NCBI RefSeq assembly: GCF_001444425.1
Contig: NZ_CP013189.1
Location: forward strand, 310,001-374,000
Origin: Pseudohongiella spirulinae
Lineage (GTDB): Bacteria > Pseudomonadota > Gammaproteobacteria > Pseudomonadales > Pseudohongiellaceae
Direction of reading: 5' to 3'
Length of the DNA stretch: 64,000 nt
Positions 11,351-47,724 of this stretch are shown here, piece after piece. The notes beneath the pieces were generated by a model, which saw only the letters and a program-made list of their open reading frames with translations, was not told the DNA's origin and did no database searches. Each line of letters opens with the position of its first letter. Position 1 is the first letter of the stretch. The position numbers and the translations under genes were made by a program.

Positions 11351-11851
11351 ATGCGACCTTTATTGCTGATCACTGCAGCCTTTGCCGGCAGCATGGTATT
11401 GATTCTGAATCTGGTTGGTCAGCCGGTTGATGCGGCGGATGACCCGCAACTGGCAGCGGTAAAAAAACAATTTGTCGGCCATTATGAGTTGGTCAGTTTT
11501 ATCAGCTACCCGGCTGGTGGCGGGGAAGTTGATAACAACTATATTGGCCGCATCATGTATGACGAGCACGATCAGATGTCTGCCCAGGGCATGCCCAAAG
11601 ATTTGCCTGCGCGCGCGGCCCAGACAACTGAACTGGTGCGTGGCGGATTCGCCTACTGGGGCCCGGTAACCTGGGATGTGTCGCAGAACAAAGTGACACA
11701 TTATGTGGAAGGTTCCCCTACTCGCGGCAGTTGGGTAGGTGAAGATAATGTACGTTACTATGAATTCACTGCAGATGGTTTGCTGAAATTATCGATTCGG
11801 GACGATAGCGGCCGAACCACCGGAACCTTGACCTGGCGCCGAATCGAATAG
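11351..11851 (+). CDS. Exported lipocalin-like domain protein
   Basis: A 166-residue protein with a signal-peptide-like N-terminus (residues 1-28, ending near VDAAD) and a single lipocalin-like beta-barrel domain of the kind found in small bacterial secreted proteins. Visible blocks are FVGHYELVSFISY, NYIGRIMYDEHDQMSAQ and GGFAYWGPVTWDV, ending with TGTLTWRRIE. The ligand is unknown. A good AGGAG lies upstream of the ATG. It stands alone, with about 125 bases to the next gene. Assignment to the lipocalin-like family is by overall pattern; function is not inferable. Confidence 0.72.
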   Translation: MRPLLLITAAFAGSMVLILNLVGQPVDAADDPQLAAVKKQFVGHYELVSFISYPAGGGEVDNNYIGRIMYDEHDQMSAQGMPKDLPARAAQTTELVRGGFAYWGPVTWDVSQNKVTHYVEGSPTRGSWVGEDNVRYYEFTADGLLKLSIRDDSGRTTGTLTWRRIE

Positions 11852-11978
11852 CAACGGAACTTGATGCAGATCAACATGTGGTGCCGGCGTCACTAATCGT
11901 GACAGCTACGACCTGTGTTAAGTCTCCCGGATGGCATAGCATTCCAGCCGCTTATTTCTGAGCGCTGTTATTTCTCTG

Positions 11979-14879
11979 GTGGCACGATTGCTTTTCATCT
12001 CTGATGTGTATCGTGATGGCCTGCGTCGACTTCTGACGCTGGCTGTTGCCCCGCTTATTCTGCTGCTTGTGGCCGTGATATTGCTGCCTGAGCTGGTCGA
12101 CTCGTTGCTGCCCGGCGGATACCTGGTATTCCATATTCTTGCCGAAAGTATTTCCATTCTGGTCTCTTTGCTGATTTTTGTGGTGGGCTGGCATGCGGCA
12201 CGCCATCGTGCAGCGCTGTCTGTTCTGCTGCTGGCCAGCGCCTTCCTGGGCGTCGGCATACTTGATTTCCTCCATACACTGACTTACGACGGCATGCCCG
12301 TGGTTATTGGGCAAAGCGACTCACAACAGTCGATTTATCTTTGGCTGGCGGCACGATTGTTGGCGGCCGCAGGGCTGCTGGCTGCGCTATTGCTGAACTG
12401 GGAGCGAACAACTGGAGTAGCCGAACGTTGGCAAGTACCCGCAGGCATTGTGCTGTTTGTGTCGCTGACTGGTTACGCCGTGTTTTCCGGCCAGATTAAA
12501 CTGCCGACGGTTTACGATCCGGCAACGGGTCTGACTGCTCTTAAAACGGCGCTGGAAGTACTGGTGATGATTATGCATCTGCTCATTGCAGTCCTGCTGA
12601 TCAGGCGAATGTCACAAGTACAGCCCTACCATGGCGTTGCCATGCTGGGCGCTAATCTGATCATGGCCATGTCGGGGATCTGGTTTATCATGTACGGTAA
12701 CCTGACGGATGGCCATATTGTCCTGGGGCACGTTTATAAAGTTATCGCTTACCTGTTTTTGTTCAGAGCGGTGTTCAGTGAGGCTATCGAATGGCCTTAT
12801 GCCCGCGTACAGGAGTCAGAGCGCAAATTGCAGGCCACTCTGAACGCCGTGCCTGATCTGATGTTTGGTATCAGTGCCGACGGCACCTACCACTATGCTC
12901 ACTCCTCTGATCCGCGTCTGCCCCAGGCTGAGCTGAATAAGCTATTGGGCGCCAATATCTGGGATTTTCTGGGTGAGCCGGGAGCCAAGGCGTTTCTTGA
13001 CGCATTGCGAGAGGCGGCCCGCCAGGGCTACTCGCGAGGACGCCAGTTCTGTATGTCATTGCCTGACGGCAAGGTCTGGTATGAGTTGTCGGTCTCGCGT
13101 AAAAAGGATCAACCTGGTGAGCCGTCAGAATTCATCGCCGTGTGCCGGGATATCACGGGTCGCAAACGGGCGGAAACTCAACTGCGCCTGGCGGCCGCTG
13201 CCTTTGAAACCCAGGTTGCCATTATGGTGACTGACGCCAATCAGACCATCCTCAAGGTGAATGAGTCGTTCAGTCGCATCACCGGATATTCCAGCGAAGA
13301 GGTTATTGGCAAGACGCCCAGGATACTCAGCTCAGGTATGCAGGACGCCGCCTTCTACCGGGCAATGTATGCTCAGTTGGAAGCCGAGGACCAGTGGGAA
13401 GGCGAAATGTGGAATCGCCGAAAAAACGGCGAGGTATATCCCGAGCATCTTAATATCAGCATTGTGCGTGACACGGATGGCAATATTGAATACTACGTGG
13501 CAAATTTTGGTGATCTGACACTCGCCAAACAGGCTGAGGAGCGGATTCATACCCTGGCCTTCTATGATTCATTGACCAATTTACCCAATCGGCGCATGTT
13601 GCTGGACCACATCACGCGGGCTCAGAACAGGGCTGAGCGCTCAGGCGGCCACACCTACTGGGCTTTGTTGTTTGTTGATCTGGATAATTTCAAGGCGCTT
13701 AACGACACCAAAGGTCATTCCACAGGGGACTTGTTATTGCGTCGCGCAGCCGAGCGAATCAAAGCCTGCACTCGCAGTAAAGATATTGTTGCCAGGCCCG
13801 GTGGTGATGAGTTTGCGATTTTGCTTAATGGCCTCAGTCATGACCTTGCTCAGGCCGCCAAGGCGACGCAGGAAGTTGCCGACAAAGTACTGGAGCAGGT
13901 GTCTAAACCCTACTACCTGAACGGTTTTTCATACATTACCACGGCCAGTGTGGGGGTCACCGTGTTTAATGGTGAGCAGTTCAGCAACGATGAATTACTG
14001 GGTCAGTCGGAGCTGGCCATGTACCGCGCCAAGGAGCAGGGTGGTAATAGTTTCAGTTTCTTTGTGCCGGAAATGCACCAGGCAGCTATTGAACGTAGCC
14101 ATCTGGAGACCGATCTTCGCGGTGCCCTCGAGAAAAATCAGTTGATGCTTTATTTTCAGCCCAAGGTGGATGGCAATGCTGATATCCAGGGTTTTGAGGT
14201 GCTGTTGCGCTGGTGTCATCCACAACGTGGAATCGTATCGCCAGCCGATTTTATTCCGATTGCCGAGGCCACGGGATTGATTGTGCCGATCGGGGAATGG
14301 GTTCTGAATGCAGTCTGTCAGCAGTTGCGTCAATGGCAGAACGATCCTCAACGCTGCCATTGGCGGTTGGCCGTCAATATCAGCGAGCGTCAGCTTTCGC
14401 ATGAGCGATTCGTTCAATCAGTCCGGGATATTCTTAAGGACCATGATTTTGATCAGAATTTAACGACAAAGCTCGAGTTTGAGATAACAGAGAGCATGTT
14501 GATGAAAAATATCGAGCACGCGGTTGCCTCGATCAGAGAGTTAAACAGTATGGGAATACAGTTTGCCATGGATGACTTTGGTACTGGTTATTCTTCGTTG
14601 AATTATCTGAAAATGCTGCCGCTGGATTGCGTAAAGGTCGATCAGAGTTTCGTGCGAGACATGCTGGTTGACCAGAGCGACGCCGCAATTGTGGAGATGG
14701 TCATAGCTCTGGCTAAAGCCATGCAGCTGGTTGTGGTTGCTGAGGGTGTCGAGACCTACGAGCAACACAAGCTGCTGGTGGGCCTGGGCTGTGATCAGAT
14801 GCAGGGTTATTATTATGGCAAACCTGCACCAATTGAGCAGATTACCAGTCAGCAGTCGCTGAAGGCCATCGCGTTTTAG
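11979..14879 (+). CDS. Membrane MASE3-PAS-PAS-GGDEF-EAL c-di-GMP enzyme
   Basis: Large (966 residues) inner-membrane protein that makes and/or degrades cyclic di-GMP. Residues 15-270 hold several membrane helices with LDFLHTLTYDGMP, the signature of the MASE3 sensor module. Two PAS domains span about 285-400 and 405-520. The GGDEF domain keeps RPGGDEFAILL and the inhibitory site RSKD just upstream. The EAL-type domain (about 705-955) keeps E-x-L-x-R as GFEVLLRW, FEITES, DDFGTGYSSL and VVAEGVET, so both halves look catalytically intact. The start is a GTG at 11979 without a clear ribosome site; the frame opens only 39 bases earlier. Single gene. Confidence 0.9.
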   Translation: MARLLFISDVYRDGLRRLLTLAVAPLILLLVAVILLPELVDSLLPGGYLVFHILAESISILVSLLIFVVGWHAARHRAALSVLLLASAFLGVGILDFLHTLTYDGMPVVIGQSDSQQSIYLWLAARLLAAAGLLAALLLNWERTTGVAERWQVPAGIVLFVSLTGYAVFSGQIKLPTVYDPATGLTALKTALEVLVMIMHLLIAVLLIRRMSQVQPYHGVAMLGANLIMAMSGIWFIMYGNLTDGHIVLGHVYKVIAYLFLFRAVFSEAIEWPYARVQESERKLQATLNAVPDLMFGISADGTYHYAHSSDPRLPQAELNKLLGANIWDFLGEPGAKAFLDALREAARQGYSRGRQFCMSLPDGKVWYELSVSRKKDQPGEPSEFIAVCRDITGRKRAETQLRLAAAAFETQVAIMVTDANQTILKVNESFSRITGYSSEEVIGKTPRILSSGMQDAAFYRAMYAQLEAEDQWEGEMWNRRKNGEVYPEHLNISIVRDTDGNIEYYVANFGDLTLAKQAEERIHTLAFYDSLTNLPNRRMLLDHITRAQNRAERSGGHTYWALLFVDLDNFKALNDTKGHSTGDLLLRRAAERIKACTRSKDIVARPGGDEFAILLNGLSHDLAQAAKATQEVADKVLEQVSKPYYLNGFSYITTASVGVTVFNGEQFSNDELLGQSELAMYRAKEQGGNSFSFFVPEMHQAAIERSHLETDLRGALEKNQLMLYFQPKVDGNADIQGFEVLLRWCHPQRGIVSPADFIPIAEATGLIVPIGEWVLNAVCQQLRQWQNDPQRCHWRLAVNISERQLSHERFVQSVRDILKDHDFDQNLTTKLEFEITESMLMKNIEHAVASIRELNSMGIQFAMDDFGTGYSSLNYLKMLPLDCVKVDQSFVRDMLVDQSDAAIVEMVIALAKAMQLVVVAEGVETYEQHKLLVGLGCDQMQGYYYGKPAPIEQITSQQSLKAIAF

Positions 14880-14973
14880 GCTGGTGCTCAATCTGGATCA
14901 GCAATCCGGCAGAACTTGTTATCCAATCGGTCAGTATTTGACTCCCGTCAAGGAAAATGAATCAGGCTTCCTG

Positions 14974-15006: not shown

Positions 15007-15024
15007 TAAAACAGGAGGTCTGGA

Positions 15025-17238
15025 TTGAGCGCGCGCATAGGACAACGGGCAGACTACTGGCAGTCGGCAGTGCAGCCAGGCAAGCCAGAGCAGCAAAATA
15101 ATGCTGAATTGTTGCTGGCTGCAGAAAGAGTGAGCCGAATGGCCAAGTGGCTGGTCATCAACATGACTTACGCCAGAAATGTGCATCTTGACGGTCGACC
15201 GCTGACCGCTACGGATCTCAAGGGCAGACCTGCCGGTAACACGTCTGCCGCCTTACGCTATGTGCCTTTGTATGTGGGTTATTTGCTGGCAAACGCATTG
15301 TCAGGCAAGACCAGGGCCTGGCTGATGTCCTGCGACGCCGGTTCAGTGGCAGTTGATGCCGTCAACGTGCTGATTGGCAATGCCGACGAATCGCAACTTT
15401 CCTGTTATTCCATGAGTGATGAAGGGTTAAGCCGGTTGTGTCGTGATTATTTCAGCGACGAAGTGACTCTGCCGGAATCCGTTCATGCTGCAAATGGCAG
15501 CGCCCTGAGACCACATTCTGCTGCAGCGCTTGCATCGGGTGTCCATGCAGGTAATACCGCCAGGCAATTTGTACATATGCCGTTGCCGGGGCAGGAGCTG
15601 GTGGTATTTCTGGACCAGCACGATCTTGGCAGTCAACCCGGCACCGACTGGGGTGCCTATTGGTGGCGTGGTGAAGATAGCGGCCTTGTAATGCCATTAT
15701 TGCAAGTAGGCGACGACTTTGCCGCTGCGACCGCACTGCTGAACGAACAGGGATTCAATCCGGTGTTGGTAGACGGAGATGATCCGATCGCGATTGCCAG
15801 GGTTATCATCGAACTGGGTGAGAATCTGCAGGAGCAACACCGCCGCGTTATCACAGGTGAAATTAACTACCCGGTCAGAATGCCGTTGGCTGTCATTCAT
15901 TTCTCGCCATCATTCGAATTGCCAGAGACCTCCAGTCTTCGGGTAAACGAAATTCTTCAGCCCCTGCATGTGCCTGTTGCTTTGTTGGAGCAGGCGGCAG
16001 ACATGTTGAACTGCCATGCCCGGCAGCGACGCACCGCCGCAAAAGATCACTGGTTGTGTCAGTTGCAGGTCAGCCAGCCAGAGCTTCCATATTTTGCGCC
16101 ACTGGAACCGTTCGACCGAAGAGCACCGATTGACATAATAGATGATTGGATCTGCCACCTGGTTGAGCAAAATCCATTTCATCGGTTCCGGATTGTTCAC
16201 ACTGGATACTGCACGCCCTGTCTGATGCCACAATCCCTGACGCTTTTGAATGTGCGCACATCAAGTGATGAGCCTGATCGGGCTGGTTCACGAAATGGTG
16301 CAGTGATTGTCGCCGCCAATGAGGAGTCGGCTGTGGCCGCCGCACTGGCCAATAAACAGGGTATTAACCTGGTACTTGCTCAGGAGGCAGCAGGTATCAG
16401 TCTCTACAGAAGCTTGCGAAGGGAGGCGGTTTTCGCTCGTGAACAAAGTGCCTGCGGTTGTCAAACCAACTGGATTGCTGTACCAATCCTGATCACTGCA
16501 CATGTCTGGGACAATAGCCGGTCCGGTTTGTGTCAGCAGTCACCAGCGCTTACTGAGGCCTGGTTGGAGGAAATGTCAGATGTGGCACCTGTTTATTTTC
16601 CAGTGGATGCTGAAACAGCCGTAGCGGTCACTGAGTTTGTTTATAGTCAGCGCGCTCGCGTGGCGCTGGTTGTGCTGCCTGGCAGTGCCGTACCGCTGGT
16701 CACGAACACCGAGCAGGCTATGTTGGCCGCGGCCCGTGGTATCACTGTGATCAGCCAGGACGATGATCCGGAGTTTCAATTGATAGCAATTGGTGCTTAT
16801 CAGTTGGCTCAGGTGCAGAGGGCTGCGGTGCGGCTCAGAGAGCGTGGCTACCGCTGTTCGGTGATATCGATTCTTGAACCGGGGCGGTTCAGGGTGGCTC
16901 GTGACGAACGGGAGTCCGATTACATCTACGATACCGATACGCTGAAATTTCTTATTCCCGATACCAGCATACGATTACTGGTTACGCATGTGCACGGTGA
17001 TATTGCGGCCGGTTTATTAAGGCGTCTGGCAGATGGAGCTGAGCATTTTCATGTTATGGGCTACTGCAATCAGGGTGGCACTTTAGATGTGTTCGGGTTA
17101 CTGTATGCCAACCATCAGACATGGGCTCATGTCTTACAACAATGTGCGCTGGCGCGGAATCTGGACATGGCTGACTTGTTAAATGACGCAGAATTGCAGG
17201 CCGTGACAGGTCGGGGCGATCCGGCTGTGCTTAGATAG
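15025..17238 (+). CDS. Phosphoketolase-like protein lacking the recognisable thiamine-diphosphate motifs
   Basis: A 737-residue protein that follows the phosphoketolase (XFP) framework from end to end. MPLLQVGDD...VDGDDP (about 228-253) parallels the VLPILHLNG...VEGDDP region. ITAHVWDNSRSGLCQQSP (His493 in TAHVW) parallels the SHVWRQDHNGFSHQDP region. The last 150 residues match the C-terminal domain, with HVMGYCNQGGT for the RGYKEEGTTTTP block. Where active enzymes have HWGT, GPGHGG and GDGEAETG, this protein has LKGRPAGN, SCDAGS and DQHDLGSQPG, so TPP and substrate binding is probably lost or changed. The start is a TTG with AGGAGG 6 bases upstream. It leads a unit with the AMP-phosphorylase-like and PRPP-synthetase genes. 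Family assignment is from remembered patterns, not a search. Confidence 0.72.
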   Translation: MSARIGQRADYWQSAVQPGKPEQQNNAELLLAAERVSRMAKWLVINMTYARNVHLDGRPLTATDLKGRPAGNTSAALRYVPLYVGYLLANALSGKTRAWLMSCDAGSVAVDAVNVLIGNADESQLSCYSMSDEGLSRLCRDYFSDEVTLPESVHAANGSALRPHSAAALASGVHAGNTARQFVHMPLPGQELVVFLDQHDLGSQPGTDWGAYWWRGEDSGLVMPLLQVGDDFAAATALLNEQGFNPVLVDGDDPIAIARVIIELGENLQEQHRRVITGEINYPVRMPLAVIHFSPSFELPETSSLRVNEILQPLHVPVALLEQAADMLNCHARQRRTAAKDHWLCQLQVSQPELPYFAPLEPFDRRAPIDIIDDWICHLVEQNPFHRFRIVHTGYCTPCLMPQSLTLLNVRTSSDEPDRAGSRNGAVIVAANEESAVAAALANKQGINLVLAQEAAGISLYRSLRREAVFAREQSACGCQTNWIAVPILITAHVWDNSRSGLCQQSPALTEAWLEEMSDVAPVYFPVDAETAVAVTEFVYSQRARVALVVLPGSAVPLVTNTEQAMLAAARGITVISQDDDPEFQLIAIGAYQLAQVQRAAVRLRERGYRCSVISILEPGRFRVARDERESDYIYDTDTLKFLIPDTSIRLLVTHVHGDIAAGLLRRLADGAEHFHVMGYCNQGGTLDVFGLLYANHQTWAHVLQQCALARNLDMADLLNDAELQAVTGRGDPAVLR

Positions 17239-17250
17239 CAATCGCAATTT

Positions 17251-18762
17251 ATGACTGAAAGCTTTCTGTATCTGACTCGGCTCGGTATCGATACCCACCA
17301 GGAGCCTGTGGTTTACATGCGCGAAGATTGTCACGTGTGTCGCTCGGAGGGCTTTGATGCTCAGGGGCGTGTTGAGATCTGCAGCGGCAAGAACTCGATA
17401 ATAGCAACGCTCGATATCGTCAAGGGTGATCTGCTCAGCCATCAGAAAGCCGGCCTGAGCGAGGCTGCCTGGCGATTGCTGGGTGCAGCTGAGGGCGACA
17501 AAGCCACCTTTCGTCACGCGCCGCCAGTTGAGTCGATGGCTTACGTAAGAGGCAAACTCTACGGTAAACCTTTCACTGAGGAAGGTGCCCGCCATATTAT
17601 CCGTGACATCGATGCTGGCCGTTATTCCGACATACAACTCTCTGCCTATGTGACGGCCTGTGCCGCCAACAATCTTAACATTGAAGAGACCATTCATATT
17701 ACCCGCGCCATGGTCGAAGCTGGTCAGCGTTTCGACTGGGGCGACGGGCGTATTGTTGTAGACAAGCATTGTGTCGGCGGTCTACCTGGCAATCGTACAA
17801 CGCCGATAGTGGTGGCCATTGCGGCAGCCAATGGCCTGACCATGCCAAAGACATCCTCCCGTGCTATTACTTCACCGGCCGGCACGGCTGATACCATGGA
17901 AACGCTGACCAGAGTGTCACTGAGTTTTAAAAAAATGCGTGCGGTGGTTGAACAGGAAGGCGCATGCCTGGCCTGGGGTGGGTCAGTGTCGCTGAGCCCG
18001 ACCGATGACATTATCATTCGCGTTGAGCGGGCGTTGGATTTGGATAGCGAGGGCCAGATGGTAGCCTCAGTTATCTCTAAAAAAGTGGCCGCTGGCTCAA
18101 CACACGTGTTGATCGATATCCCGGTTGGGCCAACCGCCAAAGTCCGCAGCGCGGAACTGGCCGAGCGACTGGCCAACGCCTTGCGGGATACGGGTGAGGC
18201 ATTGGGGCTGAGGATTAAAACCATTATCAGCGATGGTAGCCAGCCTGTCGGGCGCGGGGTCGGTCCGGCATTGGAGGCATATGACCTGTTAAAGGTATTG
18301 CAAAACCAGGCGGATGCGCCCGCTGACCTGCGCGACAGAGCGCTGGCAGTGACCGCTGCTGTACTTGAAATGGGCGGTGCATGTGAGGCGCGTGAGGGGT
18401 TGGCGCTGGCCAAAAAAACGTTGGAGTCAGGCAAGGCCTGGGAGAAATTTCAGGCCATCTGTAATGCTCAGGGTGGTTTGCGTGAACCGCCAGTGGCCAG
18501 ATTTACGCATGTCATTACCAGTGAACGCACAGGGATCGTTGCACTAATGAACAACCGGGTAATTTCCAGATTGGCCAGTCTGGCCGGTGCGCCCAATGCC
18601 CAATCTGCCGGCCTGACCATGCATGTCCGGTTGGGCGATACTGTGGAGTCGGGGCAGCCGTTGATGACCTTGCATGCTGAGGCTGCCGGCGAGCTGGAGT
18701 ACGCACTGGATTTTTATGCGGCTCATCCGGAAGCCATCCATATTGAAGAGGAGGTTGTATGA
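17251..18762 (+). CDS. Thymidine/AMP phosphorylase family protein, AMP-phosphorylase type
   Basis: Nucleoside/nucleotide phosphorylase of 503 residues. The roughly 80-residue N-terminal extension before the DeoA-like core, and DKHCVGGLPGNRTTP instead of the DKHSTGGVGD of thymidine phosphorylase, match archaeal AMP phosphorylases, which convert a nucleoside 5'-monophosphate and phosphate to base and ribose 1,5-bisphosphate. PKTSSRAITSPAGTADTME and KKVAAGSTHVLIDIPVGP agree. It begins 12 bases after the phosphoketolase-like gene and its end overlaps the PRPP-synthetase start by four bases (ATGA). The bisphosphate product is what a linked sugar-phosphate enzyme could use. AMP specificity is inferred. 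Confidence 0.85.
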   Translation: MTESFLYLTRLGIDTHQEPVVYMREDCHVCRSEGFDAQGRVEICSGKNSIIATLDIVKGDLLSHQKAGLSEAAWRLLGAAEGDKATFRHAPPVESMAYVRGKLYGKPFTEEGARHIIRDIDAGRYSDIQLSAYVTACAANNLNIEETIHITRAMVEAGQRFDWGDGRIVVDKHCVGGLPGNRTTPIVVAIAAANGLTMPKTSSRAITSPAGTADTMETLTRVSLSFKKMRAVVEQEGACLAWGGSVSLSPTDDIIIRVERALDLDSEGQMVASVISKKVAAGSTHVLIDIPVGPTAKVRSAELAERLANALRDTGEALGLRIKTIISDGSQPVGRGVGPALEAYDLLKVLQNQADAPADLRDRALAVTAAVLEMGGACEAREGLALAKKTLESGKAWEKFQAICNAQGGLREPPVARFTHVITSERTGIVALMNNRVISRLASLAGAPNAQSAGLTMHVRLGDTVESGQPLMTLHAEAAGELEYALDFYAAHPEAIHIEEEVV

Positions 18763-19646
18763 CTCCGATTCTGTACGAGATGCCCGGCCAGGAGCCTCTG
18801 GCCCGGAGTCTGTCAAAGCTGTTGGGGTGGCAGCAGGGGCAGGCAATTATCCGGCAGTTTCCCGACGGAGAAACATATATCCGCATACTTGACGATGTGC
18901 GTGACAAAAAGGCCGTTATCCTGAGTCAGTTGCATCACCCGGACGAAACAACTCTACCGATGTTGCTGATGGCTGATACGCTGCGCGACCTGGGTGCAGA
19001 AAAGGTTGGTCTGATTGCGCCGTATCTGGCCTATATGCGTCAGGACAAGCGATTTAATGAAGGTGAAGGCGTCAGCTCACACTATTATTCAAGATTAATC
19101 AGTGCTCACCTTGACTGGTTATTGACAGTAGATCCTCATTTGCACCGGATTCATGATTTATCTGAAGTTTACAGCATTCCCTCACTTTCCCTTACGGCGG
19201 TGGCGCCAATGGCGGGCTGGATAAGGGAGAATGTTGACAGGCCGCTGATCATTGGTCCCGACAGTGAATCTGAGCAATGGGCTGCCAGAGTGGCAGAGCT
19301 GGCAGGAGCGCCGTGCGAGGTGCTAACGAAACAAAGGCTGGGCGACAGAGATGTCAAGATTTCGCTGCCGCATGTAGATCGCTATCTGGATTATACGCCT
19401 GTGTTGGTGGACGATATGATCAGCACGGGCCGAACCATGATACAGGCTGCCGGGCATCTCACTTCAGCGGGCATGCGAGCACCGATCTGTGTGGTCGTGC
19501 ACGGTCTGTTTTCACCAGGCGCCCGGCAGGAGCTGCAGGACAGCCAGTTAACGGTAGTGACCTGCAATAGCATTCCTGATGCCAGCAACAAGATTGATCT
19601 GGCACCTTTACTGGGTGAAGGTCTGGCGTGTCTATCTGGTATTTGA
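18759..19646 (+). CDS. prs: Ribose-phosphate pyrophosphokinase family protein, short form
   Basis: PRPP-synthetase family protein of 295 residues, about 20 shorter than the housekeeping enzyme. The N-terminal half has FPDGETYIRI and the PYLAYMRQDKRF block, including the ATP-binding arginine region. DPHLHRIHDL is the metal/ATP-binding histidine region. The PRPP-binding loop VLVDDMISTGRTM is intact. Family members make PRPP from ribose 5-phosphate and ATP. Coupling to an AMP-phosphorylase-type gene suggests a specialised role in nucleotide turnover or ribose-bisphosphate metabolism rather than the main purine supply; a second prs elsewhere is expected. Convergent with the metallo-beta-lactamase gene, 20 bases apart. 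Confidence 0.86.
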   Translation: MTPILYEMPGQEPLARSLSKLLGWQQGQAIIRQFPDGETYIRILDDVRDKKAVILSQLHHPDETTLPMLLMADTLRDLGAEKVGLIAPYLAYMRQDKRFNEGEGVSSHYYSRLISAHLDWLLTVDPHLHRIHDLSEVYSIPSLSLTAVAPMAGWIRENVDRPLIIGPDSESEQWAARVAELAGAPCEVLTKQRLGDRDVKISLPHVDRYLDYTPVLVDDMISTGRTMIQAAGHLTSAGMRAPICVVVHGLFSPGARQELQDSQLTVVTCNSIPDASNKIDLAPLLGEGLACLSGI

Positions 19647-46401: not shown

Positions 46402-47724
46402 TCAGCGCTTTGCCGGTATTCGGGCATGCAGGGGTTGCAGGCGGCAGTCTGGTTTCGCCATCAGGAACTGCGCTGTATGTATAACCCGCTCCATGAATCC
46501 GCCCTGGCAATAAGCCAGATAGTAGTCCCACATGCGGATGAAGTCCGGACCAAAGCCCTGCTCCTGGATGTTACGCACCTTGCTCAGGAATGTGGTGCGC
46601 CAGCGCTCCAGGGTCAGTGCATAATCGCGTGTGATATCTTCAAGCCCTACGATCTGCAGATCGGTATCCTTGCAAATGTGATTGGCGATGGCGGTGTTGC
46701 TGGGCAGACATCCACCGGGAAAGATATACCGCTGAATGAAGTCGACACTGTGCAATGAATTTTCGTAACGCTGGTCAGAGATGGTGATGGCCTGAATCAG
46801 CATTAACCCGTCTGACTTGAGCAGTGACGAACATTTGGCAAAGTAGGTGCTGAAATACTGGTGACCAACAGCCTCTATCATTTCGATGGAGACCAGCTTG
46901 TCGTACTGACCTTGCAGATTTCGATAGTCCTCCAGGAGAATTTCAATGCGGTCCTGTAGTCCCTCTTCAGCCACACGCTTGCAGGCGTACTCATATTGCT
47001 CCTGTGAAATCGTCGCGGAGGTGACCCGGCAGCCGTAGTGCCTGGCTGCATGAATGGCCATTGAGCCCCAGCCGGTGCCGATCTCCAGCAGGTGATCGTC
47101 GGGTTTGAGTTGCAGACGCTCACAGATGTGGGTCAGTTTGTTGAGCGAAGCTTCATGCAAGGATTGTTTTTCGTGTTCAAAAATCGCCGCCGAGTACATC
47201 ATGGACGGGTCCAGGAAGGTCTCAAAAAACTGGTTGCTCAGGTCGTAATGAGCGGCAATGTTGGCTTTGGATCCGCTTATGGTGTTGCGATTGCGCAGAT
47301 GCAGTACTTTGTTCAGCATACGTGCGACCCAGGATTTGCCGCCGTCCATGCCTTGTAATACCGGAAGGTTCAGTACCATGATGCGAACCAGAGCGACCAG
47401 GTCAGGTGTGTGCCACTGATGACGCATGTAAGACTCGCCGCCGCCAATGCTGCCGTTGTAGGCAACGGCCTGATAAAAATCTGGATCCGTCACAATGACA
47501 TGTGCTGTCAGAGAGTCCGGTGTCTGTTCACCAAAGCGCAACAACTGGTCACCTTCGTCGATGATCAGAGTGCCTTTGGAGATCAGATTTAGTCGGCGGT
47601 GCAACAGTTCACGGGCCAGTCGCTGTCGGGCCGTGGCTTTATCCATCAGACCGCGGGAGATTGAGTCAGATTCAAGCACGCCTGCCTGGACAAGGCCAGC
47701 CTGGTAGTTGCCGGGTGATTTCAT
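46402..47724 (-). CDS. cfa: Cyclopropane-fatty-acyl-phospholipid synthase family methyltransferase
   Basis: SAM-dependent enzyme of 440 residues that modifies unsaturated acyl chains of membrane phospholipids. An N-terminal lipid-binding domain of about 130 residues precedes the Rossmann domain with LLEIGTGWGSMA (SAM motif). AAHYDLSNQFFETFLDPSMMYS, IEMIEAVGHQYF and QRYIFPGGCLPS are family signatures; active-site residues in these blocks are kept. Location under a putative ECF/ChrR promoter suggests a stress-induced paralogue, possibly making cyclopropane or another modified fatty acid. Overlaps the DUF1365 gene by four bases. Confidence 0.92.
   Translation of the reverse strand: MKSPGNYQAGLVQAGVLESDSISRGLMDKATARQRLARELLHRRLNLISKGTLIIDEGDQLLRFGEQTPDSLTAHVIVTDPDFYQAVAYNGSIGGGESYMRHQWHTPDLVALVRIMVLNLPVLQGMDGGKSWVARMLNKVLHLRNRNTISGSKANIAAHYDLSNQFFETFLDPSMMYSAAIFEHEKQSLHEASLNKLTHICERLQLKPDDHLLEIGTGWGSMAIHAARHYGCRVTSATISQEQYEYACKRVAEEGLQDRIEILLEDYRNLQGQYDKLVSIEMIEAVGHQYFSTYFAKCSSLLKSDGLMLIQAITISDQRYENSLHSVDFIQRYIFPGGCLPSNTAIANHICKDTDLQIVGLEDITRDYALTLERWRTTFLSKVRNIQEQGFGPDFIRMWDYYLAYCQGGFMERVIHTAQFLMAKPDCRLQPLHARIPAKR

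What the first reader, a model, noticed from the sequence alone, without database searches (positions are those of the whole stretch)
15025..19646. Operon of a motif-less phosphoketolase, an AMP-phosphorylase-type protein and a short PRPP synthetase
Seen: three tightly linked genes (12-base gap, then ATGA overlap). The first aligns along the phosphoketolase framework (VDGDDP, TAHVW, NQGGT regions), but the HWGT, GPGHGG, GDGEAETG and QDHNG blocks read LKGRPAGN, SCDAGS, DQHDLGSQPG and DNSRSG. Known: AMP phosphorylases make ribose 1,5-bisphosphate; PRPP synthetases use ribose 5-phosphate. Inference: the first protein is either a non-catalytic scaffold/sensor or an enzyme with new chemistry on the sugar bisphosphate, and the unit is a nucleotide-sugar salvage or turnover route. 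I cannot say whether it has been described.
Basis: partly seen in the sequence, partly recalled or inferred. Interest (0 to 1): 0.78.

Follow-up and report, generated by a model that had tools for sequence, protein, structure and literature searches.

The report
Dead phosphoketolase kept beside nucleotide enzymes
A bacterium carries a sugar-splitting enzyme that appears to have lost its catalytic centre yet has been kept beside two nucleotide-processing enzymes, behind what looks like a low-oxygen switch, while relatives carry an intact version together with an energy-harvesting partner.

Summary
The three genes are real, and the first encodes a phosphoketolase-fold protein without its catalytic and cofactor residues. 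But the family is not motif-less: 43 of 43 rows outside one group in the genus Pseudohongiella keep all 16 active-site positions scored. The window copy has changed 13 of 16, three relatives 9-10 (one side of a branch, 94/90). All 5 genomes with the dead form lack acetate kinase; all 11 related genomes with an intact form have one. Among dead-form relatives dN/dS is 0.04-0.07, so selection kept the altered protein there. The window copy is far more diverged but has an open frame, a Shine-Dalgarno site and an FNR/Anr-type box. A sister genome carries an in-frame deletion.

Phosphoketolase, acetate kinase, AMP-phosphorylase-like, PRPP-synthetase-like and beta-CASP hydrolase genes recur together across Pseudomonadota; in Bradyrhizobium, genes so named are FixK2 targets.

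Best reading: a low-oxygen nucleotide-pentose-to-acetyl-phosphate module that lost acetate kinase here, leaving a pseudoenzyme as a probable structural or regulatory partner. Lack of activity is inferred from residues; the partner role is a guess.

The parts
15025..17238 (+). Phosphoketolase-family protein with lost active site (pseudo-phosphoketolase), 737 aa
17251..18762 (+). AMP phosphorylase / archaeal-type thymidine phosphorylase-like protein, 503 aa; keeps 197 of 199 columns invariant in 11 relatives
18759..19646 (+). PRPP-synthetase-like protein (NF005537), 295 aa; one of two matches in the genome
19667..21070 (-). Beta-CASP metallo-beta-lactamase-fold hydrolase (named by reading its sequence, no family search), conserved neighbour of the module
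14938..14951 (+). FNR/Anr-type box TTGACTCCCGTCAA, 87 bases before the start codon; three dead-form relatives have TTGACTCCGGTCAA in the matching place
15013..15018 (+). Shine-Dalgarno AGGAGG before the TTG start

Best explanation
The first gene descends from an active, TPP-dependent phosphoketolase of a distant subfamily. That enzyme belonged to a low-oxygen module with acetate kinase, an AMP-phosphorylase-like enzyme, a PRPP-synthetase-like enzyme and a beta-CASP nuclease-like hydrolase. The module's likely job is to release pentose phosphate from nucleotides or RNA and split it into acetyl phosphate and a triose phosphate, with acetate kinase making ATP (inferred). In this Pseudohongiella lineage acetate kinase was lost and the phosphoketolase lost its catalytic histidines and then, in the window species, its Mg-TPP residues. 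The protein was nevertheless retained by selection, still behind an FNR/Anr-type box and directly ahead of the two nucleotide genes. Shown: fold, residue losses, absence of acetate kinase, purifying selection on the dead form in relatives, conserved box. Inferred: absence of activity, low-oxygen expression, and that it now serves as a structural or regulatory partner, probably through its conserved C-terminal domain and dimer.
For: Fold. Intact family aligns with solved phosphoketolases over nearly its full length, 9cd3 at 6.6e-41. Active-site loss confined to window, L080, L081 and L082 among 47 rows; in the set found without motif seeds, 25 intact and 4 altered of 29 rows. One side of a branch, 94/90. 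Acetate kinase in 0 of 5 dead-form genomes and 11 of 11 intact-form genomes. dN/dS 0.044-0.072 in five dead-form pairs, against 0.036-0.111 in seven intact pairs with usable dS. No stops, although neutral simulation at 0.1 substitutions per site left 0 of 200 runs stop-free. Of 233 near-invariant columns, C-terminal ones are 92% kept against 44-54% elsewhere; on a looser set of 413 the figures are 75% and 44-53%. AMPP and PRS keep 197 of 199 and 85 of 89 invariant columns. FNR-type box and an Fnr-type regulator over its cut-off. Module recurrence. B. diazoefficiens tables.
Against: Genome G004, whose AMPP is 89% identical to that of L049, has an in-frame deletion of nearly the whole gene, so it can be dispensed with. 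dS of the window copy against relatives is saturated, so selection on that copy could not be measured directly, and its branch is extreme (2.36); slow decay is possible, and the tree tool warns that the place of so long a row is unsure. The 94/90 branch misses the tool's 95/80 mark; the smallest starred set holding the window copy has 8 rows, 4 intact and 4 dead. Dead relatives keep the Mg aspartate (3 of 3), the Mg asparagine (2 of 3) and the TPP-activating glutamate, so they could still bind TPP or do other chemistry. No activity, binding or expression data exist. The perfect FNR-type box was found upstream in 7 of 75 loci of the wider family, 3 of them the dead ones. The 11-against-5 acetate kinase split probably reflects one event.
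Confidence: 0.62

Rival explanations
1. Slow decay: the gene became useless when acetate kinase was lost, and is eroding towards the deletion seen in G004, held only because it sits ahead of two needed genes.
For: Extreme branch of the window copy, 106 of 233 near-invariant columns changed, in-frame excision in G004 that keeps box and start codon.
Against: dN/dS 0.044-0.072 on the already altered form; the same altered letters shared by L049, L062 and L064 in most motifs; no stop in 737 codons; C-terminal part better kept.
Confidence: 0.2
2. New chemistry: the altered site still binds TPP or another ligand and catalyses a different reaction on a pentose phosphate or bisphosphate.
For: Dead relatives keep the Mg aspartate, the Mg asparagine in 2 of 3 and the TPP-activating glutamate, and share specific replacements (H64 to C, H97 to N, H553 to R); purifying selection.
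Against: The window copy has lost both Mg ligands and has two deletions beside TPP-site blocks; the model has low confidence at residues 146-159 and 205-207.
Confidence: 0.13
3. The window protein is still a phosphoketolase with unusual residues.
For: Fold and XFP domain match, 57.6 bits against cut-off 22.
Against: 13 of 16 positions changed that 43 of 43 other rows keep, no XFP_N match, no acetate kinase and only one PTA-domain match in the genome, in a 769-codon frame of malic-enzyme size (reading by length).
Confidence: 0.04
4. Assembly or sequencing artefact.
For: None found.
Against: Single-contig genome and four other assemblies with the same kind of losses.
Confidence: 0.01

Closest known systems
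Phosphoketolase (XFP), Bifidobacterium 3AHC/3AI7, Lactococcus 6GUA, Synechococcus 8IO8
   Same: Same fold; intact relatives of the window protein keep most active-site residues named for the Bifidobacterium enzyme
   Different: Window copy lacks the catalytic histidines and both Mg-TPP ligands; even the intact subfamily differs at Q321, Q546 and H548 (read from the alignments)
Thermococcus AMP phosphorylase (4GA4-4GA6; organism and activity recalled, the records say putative thymidine phosphorylase)
   Same: Best solved relative of the second protein, E 2.5e-101
   Different: Below the AMP_phos equivalog cut-off, 476.6 against 535 bits; substrate untested
Methanocaldococcus PRPP synthetase (1U9Y; organism recalled)
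   Same: Best solved relative of the third protein, E 7e-42, similar length
   Different: A second PRPP-synthetase-like frame lies elsewhere in the genome; this one sits in a phosphorylase operon; substrate untested
Bradyrhizobium diazoefficiens bll2518-bll2517 and bll3117-bll3116-bll3115
   Same: Same named set (phosphoketolase, acetate kinase; thymidine phosphorylase, PRPP synthetase, MBL hydrolase), with FixK2-type motifs in a fixK2 mutant table and positive values in a microoxia table (PMC9104804, PMC6515984, passages; column heads of the microoxia table not seen)
   Different: Two operons; acetate kinase present; sequence membership of bll2518 not tested here
Pseudomonas aeruginosa PA3613/PA3614
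   Same: Phosphoketolase and MBL genes listed in a table that cites anaerobic and Anr studies (PMC8575079 passages; column heads not seen)
   Different: Identity with the present family is recalled, not tested; no AMPP or PRS match within the stretches fetched around the f21 and f20 loci

Membership tests
Phosphoketolase (XFP) | Phosphoketolase fold | tested here: met
   First 20 Foldseek hits, TMq 0.70-0.78
Phosphoketolase (XFP) | XFP C-terminal Pfam domain PF03894 | tested here: met
   57.6 bits, cut-off 22
Phosphoketolase (XFP) | XFP_N domain PF09364 | tested here: not met
   No match in protein or genome
Phosphoketolase (XFP) | Mg-TPP ligands (GDG...N) | tested here: not met
   Q, H and a gap at the D, G and N positions
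Phosphoketolase (XFP) | Catalytic His64, His97, His320, His553, Tyr501 | tested here: not met
   N, A, gap, Q, Q; residue list from PMC10547157 passages
Phosphoketolase (XFP) | Formation of acetyl phosphate | not testable with these tools
   Needs an assay
AMP phosphorylase | TIGR03327 equivalog cut-off | tested here: not met
   476.6 against 535 bits
AMP phosphorylase | Archaeal-type phosphorylase family TIGR02645 | tested here: met
   586.1 against 434.6 bits
AMP phosphorylase | Phosphorolysis of nucleoside monophosphates | not testable with these tools
   Needs an assay
PRPP synthetase | TIGR01251 and NF005537 cut-offs | tested here: met
   188.9 against 113 and 371.7 against 322 bits
Archaeal AMP/RuBisCO pathway | Ribose-1,5-bisphosphate isomerase TIGR00511 | tested here: not met
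   0 of 22 genomes over cut-off; 19 of 22 with weaker matches, G000's in a 372-codon frame

The most novel reading that the evidence does not exclude
A phosphoketolase turned into a regulatory pseudoenzyme: the dead protein forms a complex with the AMP-phosphorylase-like and PRPP-synthetase-like enzymes and tunes nucleotide breakdown when oxygen runs out. Its active relatives form an unrecognised, widespread pathway that ferments RNA or nucleotide pentose to acetate plus ATP during oxygen limitation.
Probability: 0.3. Interest if true: 0.8.

Novelty: new variant of a known kind. Interest (0 to 1): 0.6.

Why it matters
It gives a graded natural series in one genus: active enzyme with acetate kinase, dead enzyme under purifying selection, heavily diverged dead enzyme, in-frame excision. 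That makes testable when and why a metabolic enzyme is kept after its chemistry is gone. The intact family points to a common but apparently undescribed low-oxygen module joining nucleotide phosphorolysis to phosphoketolase and acetate kinase, that is, ATP from stored RNA when respiration stops. The two searches for AMP phosphorylase together with phosphoketolase found no paper; the library holds open-licence papers only.

Tried and rejected
A family-wide loss of motifs was rejected. A nucleotide-to-RuBisCO route of the archaeal kind was not supported, as no isomerase passed its cut-off. Canonical phosphoketolase elsewhere in the genome as backup: no XFP_N match and no second match of the window protein at E 0.001. 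The ATP-sensing motif of Synechococcus phosphoketolase (PMC10365998 passages) was compared by eye only and was not apparent in this family; no count was made. The strict FNR pattern TTGATNNNNATCAA with one mismatch allowed found 7 of 75 upstream stretches and none of the dead-clade boxes; the wider TTGAYNNNNRTCAA is a second, post hoc pattern. A3 holds 47 rows: the window and 46 of those 80 loci. In the codon work the near-identical intact pair L058/L061 is left out of the range quoted, and two intact XFPL pairs and all three window XFPL pairs had saturated dS and gave no ratio; two of the five dead-form pairs rest on 383 codons. L076 (G424) shows a frame break near its end and was counted as intact by motif. 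The low-oxygen locus of Burkholderia was searched as a parallel; none of the 10 papers listed holds the word phosphoketolase. Searches on PA3613, on AMP phosphorylase with ribose 1-5-bisphosphate, and on Pseudohongiella added nothing further (for 10 of 415 papers listed).
Full report
What is there. Three ORFs on the + strand, 15025-17238, 17251-18762 and 18759-19646, are tightly linked by a 12-base gap and an ATGA overlap. The first starts with TTG, six bases after AGGAGG. It matches the Pfam XFP domain at 1.8e-15 but not XFP_N. The second belongs to the archaeal-type phosphorylase family TIGR02645 (586.1 bits, cut-off 434.6) but stays under the AMP-phosphorylase equivalog cut-off (476.6 against 535). 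The third passes NF005537. Closest solved relatives are phosphoketolases, 4GA5 (recalled as Thermococcus AMP phosphorylase) and 1U9Y (recalled as the Methanocaldococcus PRPP synthetase).

Fold. An AlphaFold2 model from 47 aligned sequences has mean pLDDT 82.8 and pTM 0.83; segments under 50 are 1-3, 146-159 and 205-207. The first 20 Foldseek hits in the PDB are phosphoketolases; the rest of the 50 listed are transketolases.

The family is intact; the window group is not. Whole-protein searches matched in 22 of 56 related genomes (18 at E below 1e-100) and 62 of 398 of the phylum (13 at E below 1e-100); nearly all weaker matches cover only the C-terminal third and are taken to be ordinary phosphoketolases. 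In an alignment of the window protein and 28 full-length relatives, 25 rows keep the phosphoketolase-type blocks (some with single changes such as GHAGG or MEQGHC) and 4 rows (window, L049, L062, L064) do not. A profile of ten intact members aligns with solved phosphoketolases over positions 46-760 of 785, 9cd3 at 6.6e-41. In a wider alignment 43 of 43 rows outside the group keep all 16 positions scored; L080 and L081 have changed 9, L082 10 and the window 13, keeping only the glutamate of NEE, the tryptophan and the glutamine. That wider set was seeded with near-intact motifs, so it cannot exclude other dead members. A partial copy in a fifth genome, G005 (L078), has the altered C-terminal half. 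The residues lost include equivalents of His64, His97, His320, Tyr501 and His553, listed for the Bifidobacterium active site in PMC10547157 (passages). The column labels H64 and so on are recalled; H64 was tied to 3AI7 by counting in the alignment, the others by the aligned motifs.

Origin and names. G000 is a single contig of 3,345,119 bases. In an IQ-TREE tree of 31 rows the four full-length dead rows are one side of a branch (94/90, just under the tool's mark for a firm branch; 96% of bootstrap trees), next to intact L050 of the same genus. The window end branch is 2.36 against a median of 0.096, and the tool warns that the place of such a row is unsure.

Loss of the partner. Acetate kinase lies directly upstream of the intact gene in L050, L052-L055, L058, L060, L061 and L077 (named by reading the sequence, and agreeing in place with PF00871 matches). 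Genome-wide, PF00871 is found in 0 of 5 genomes with the dead form (G000, G001, G002, G005, G006) and in 11 of 11 with an intact form (G003, G007, G008, G011-G014, G018, G025, G029, G034; in G003, G011 and G025 it lies elsewhere in the genome, in G008 it is cut by a contig end). The search covered 35 genomes, 15 positive. G006 is only 72% complete. Phosphotransacetylase-type PF01515 is absent from G001, G002, G005 and G006; the one match in G000 lies in a 769-codon frame, malic-enzyme size (reading by length). Two intact-form genomes, G018 and G034, also lack PF01515. The dead-form genomes share ancestry, so this is probably one event.

Selection. Nei-Gojobori dN/dS among dead relatives is 0.072, 0.068, 0.045, 0.044 and 0.046 in five pairs, close to seven intact pairs with usable dS (0.036 to 0.111, leaving out one near-identical pair) and to the neighbouring genes. 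For the window copy dS is saturated; dN is 0.53-0.55 against 0.165-0.182 for the second protein and 0.24-0.26 for the third. Random neutral substitution at 0.1 per site gave a mean of 6.4 stops and 0 of 200 stop-free runs; at 0.05, 7 of 200. So the open frame is not a neutral relic over that distance, though a recent loss of constraint is not excluded. Of 233 near-invariant columns the window keeps 127: 50%, 44% and 54% in the N-terminal, middle and pyrimidine parts, 92% in the C-terminal part (25 columns), and 8 of 8 tryptophans; on 413 columns invariant in eight family members the C-terminal figure is 75%. The second and third proteins keep 197 of 199 and 85 of 89 columns invariant in 11 rows, against 169 of 306 for the first with 12 rows.

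Against it. In G004 (85% complete assembly) the gene is reduced by an in-frame deletion: box, start and first codons run into the last codons, and the second and third genes follow. So the protein is dispensable there. In G020 the second and third genes also stand without it.

Regulation. Two perfect TTGAYNNNNRTCAA sites occur in the 64 kb window, 0.28 expected; 4 of 100 shuffles reach two. They lie at 11861 and at 14938, the latter 87 bases before the first gene. L080-L082 have TTGACTCCGGTCAA in the matching place, and the G004 remnant has TTGACCCCGATCAA. In the wider family perfect sites were found upstream in 7 of 75 loci, 3 of them the dead ones, and in 0 of 225 in-gene control windows, so the exact box is not general. 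The genome has an Fnr-type regulator over its cut-off. In B. diazoefficiens, genes named phosphoketolase and acetate kinase (one operon) and thymidine phosphorylase, PRPP synthetase and MBL hydrolase (another) stand in a table of genes lowered in fixK2 mutants with FixK2-type motifs (PMC9104804, passage), and four of them in a microoxia table (PMC6515984, passages; column heads not seen). In P. aeruginosa PA3613 and PA3614 stand in a table citing anaerobic and Anr studies (PMC8575079, passages). That these proteins belong to the present family was not tested.

The module. In 80 loci from named genomes the hydrolase is seen in 46, the phosphorylase in 42, the PRPP-synthetase-like gene in 40 and acetate kinase in 33. 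Outside 16 loci set aside as near, the counts are 33, 27, 27 and 26 of 64. Among 36 window ORFs, only the four of this block exceed 9 of those 64 loci. The loci were all chosen for having the first gene, many do not span the full 10 kb on each side, and related genomes are among them.

Mechanism. Inferred: oxygen limitation induces the module; the hydrolase and phosphorylase release pentose phosphate from RNA or nucleotides; phosphoketolase yields acetyl phosphate; acetate kinase yields ATP. The steps between the phosphorylase product and the phosphoketolase substrate are unknown. The archaeal isomerase was not found: 0 of 22 genomes over cut-off, with weaker matches in 19. With acetate kinase gone, the phosphoketolase reaction lost its use; the dead protein remains, I suggest, as a dimer that binds or steadies the two nucleotide enzymes. 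This last step has no direct evidence.

Novelty. A homologue of a known enzyme that has become a pseudoenzyme in a conserved operon is a new variant of a known kind. Paper searches for AMP phosphorylase with phosphoketolase returned none. In the search with pseudoenzyme, none of the 12 of 67 papers listed holds that word.

Noticed in passing
window 11861-11874 and 11979-14879: A perfect FNR-type box lies between the gene ending at 11851 and a GGDEF/EAL-type ORF (named by reading its sequence); in G020 (L161) a 61% relative of part of that ORF stands directly beside the phosphorylase gene.
   Followed up: partly
L160:9890-10235: In-frame natural deletion of the phosphoketolase-like gene in G004, keeping box, start codon and its place ahead of the next gene.
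   Followed up: yes
L050:10474-13888: In G014 three ORFs on the opposite strand (by eye one like topoisomerase IB, two perhaps ferritin-like) sit between the phosphoketolase-like and phosphorylase genes.
   Followed up: no
window 46402-47724: An ORF unrelated to the module by position has tblastn matches in 9 of the 64 more distant phosphoketolase loci.
   Followed up: no
loci L080-L159: A P-type-ATPase-like protein (about 860 aa, named by eye) forms a neighbour cluster in 29 of 80 loci; P. aeruginosa PA1429, also a P-type ATPase, is in the same table as PA3614.
   Followed up: no
L076: The copy in G424 is split over two frames near its end.
   Followed up: no
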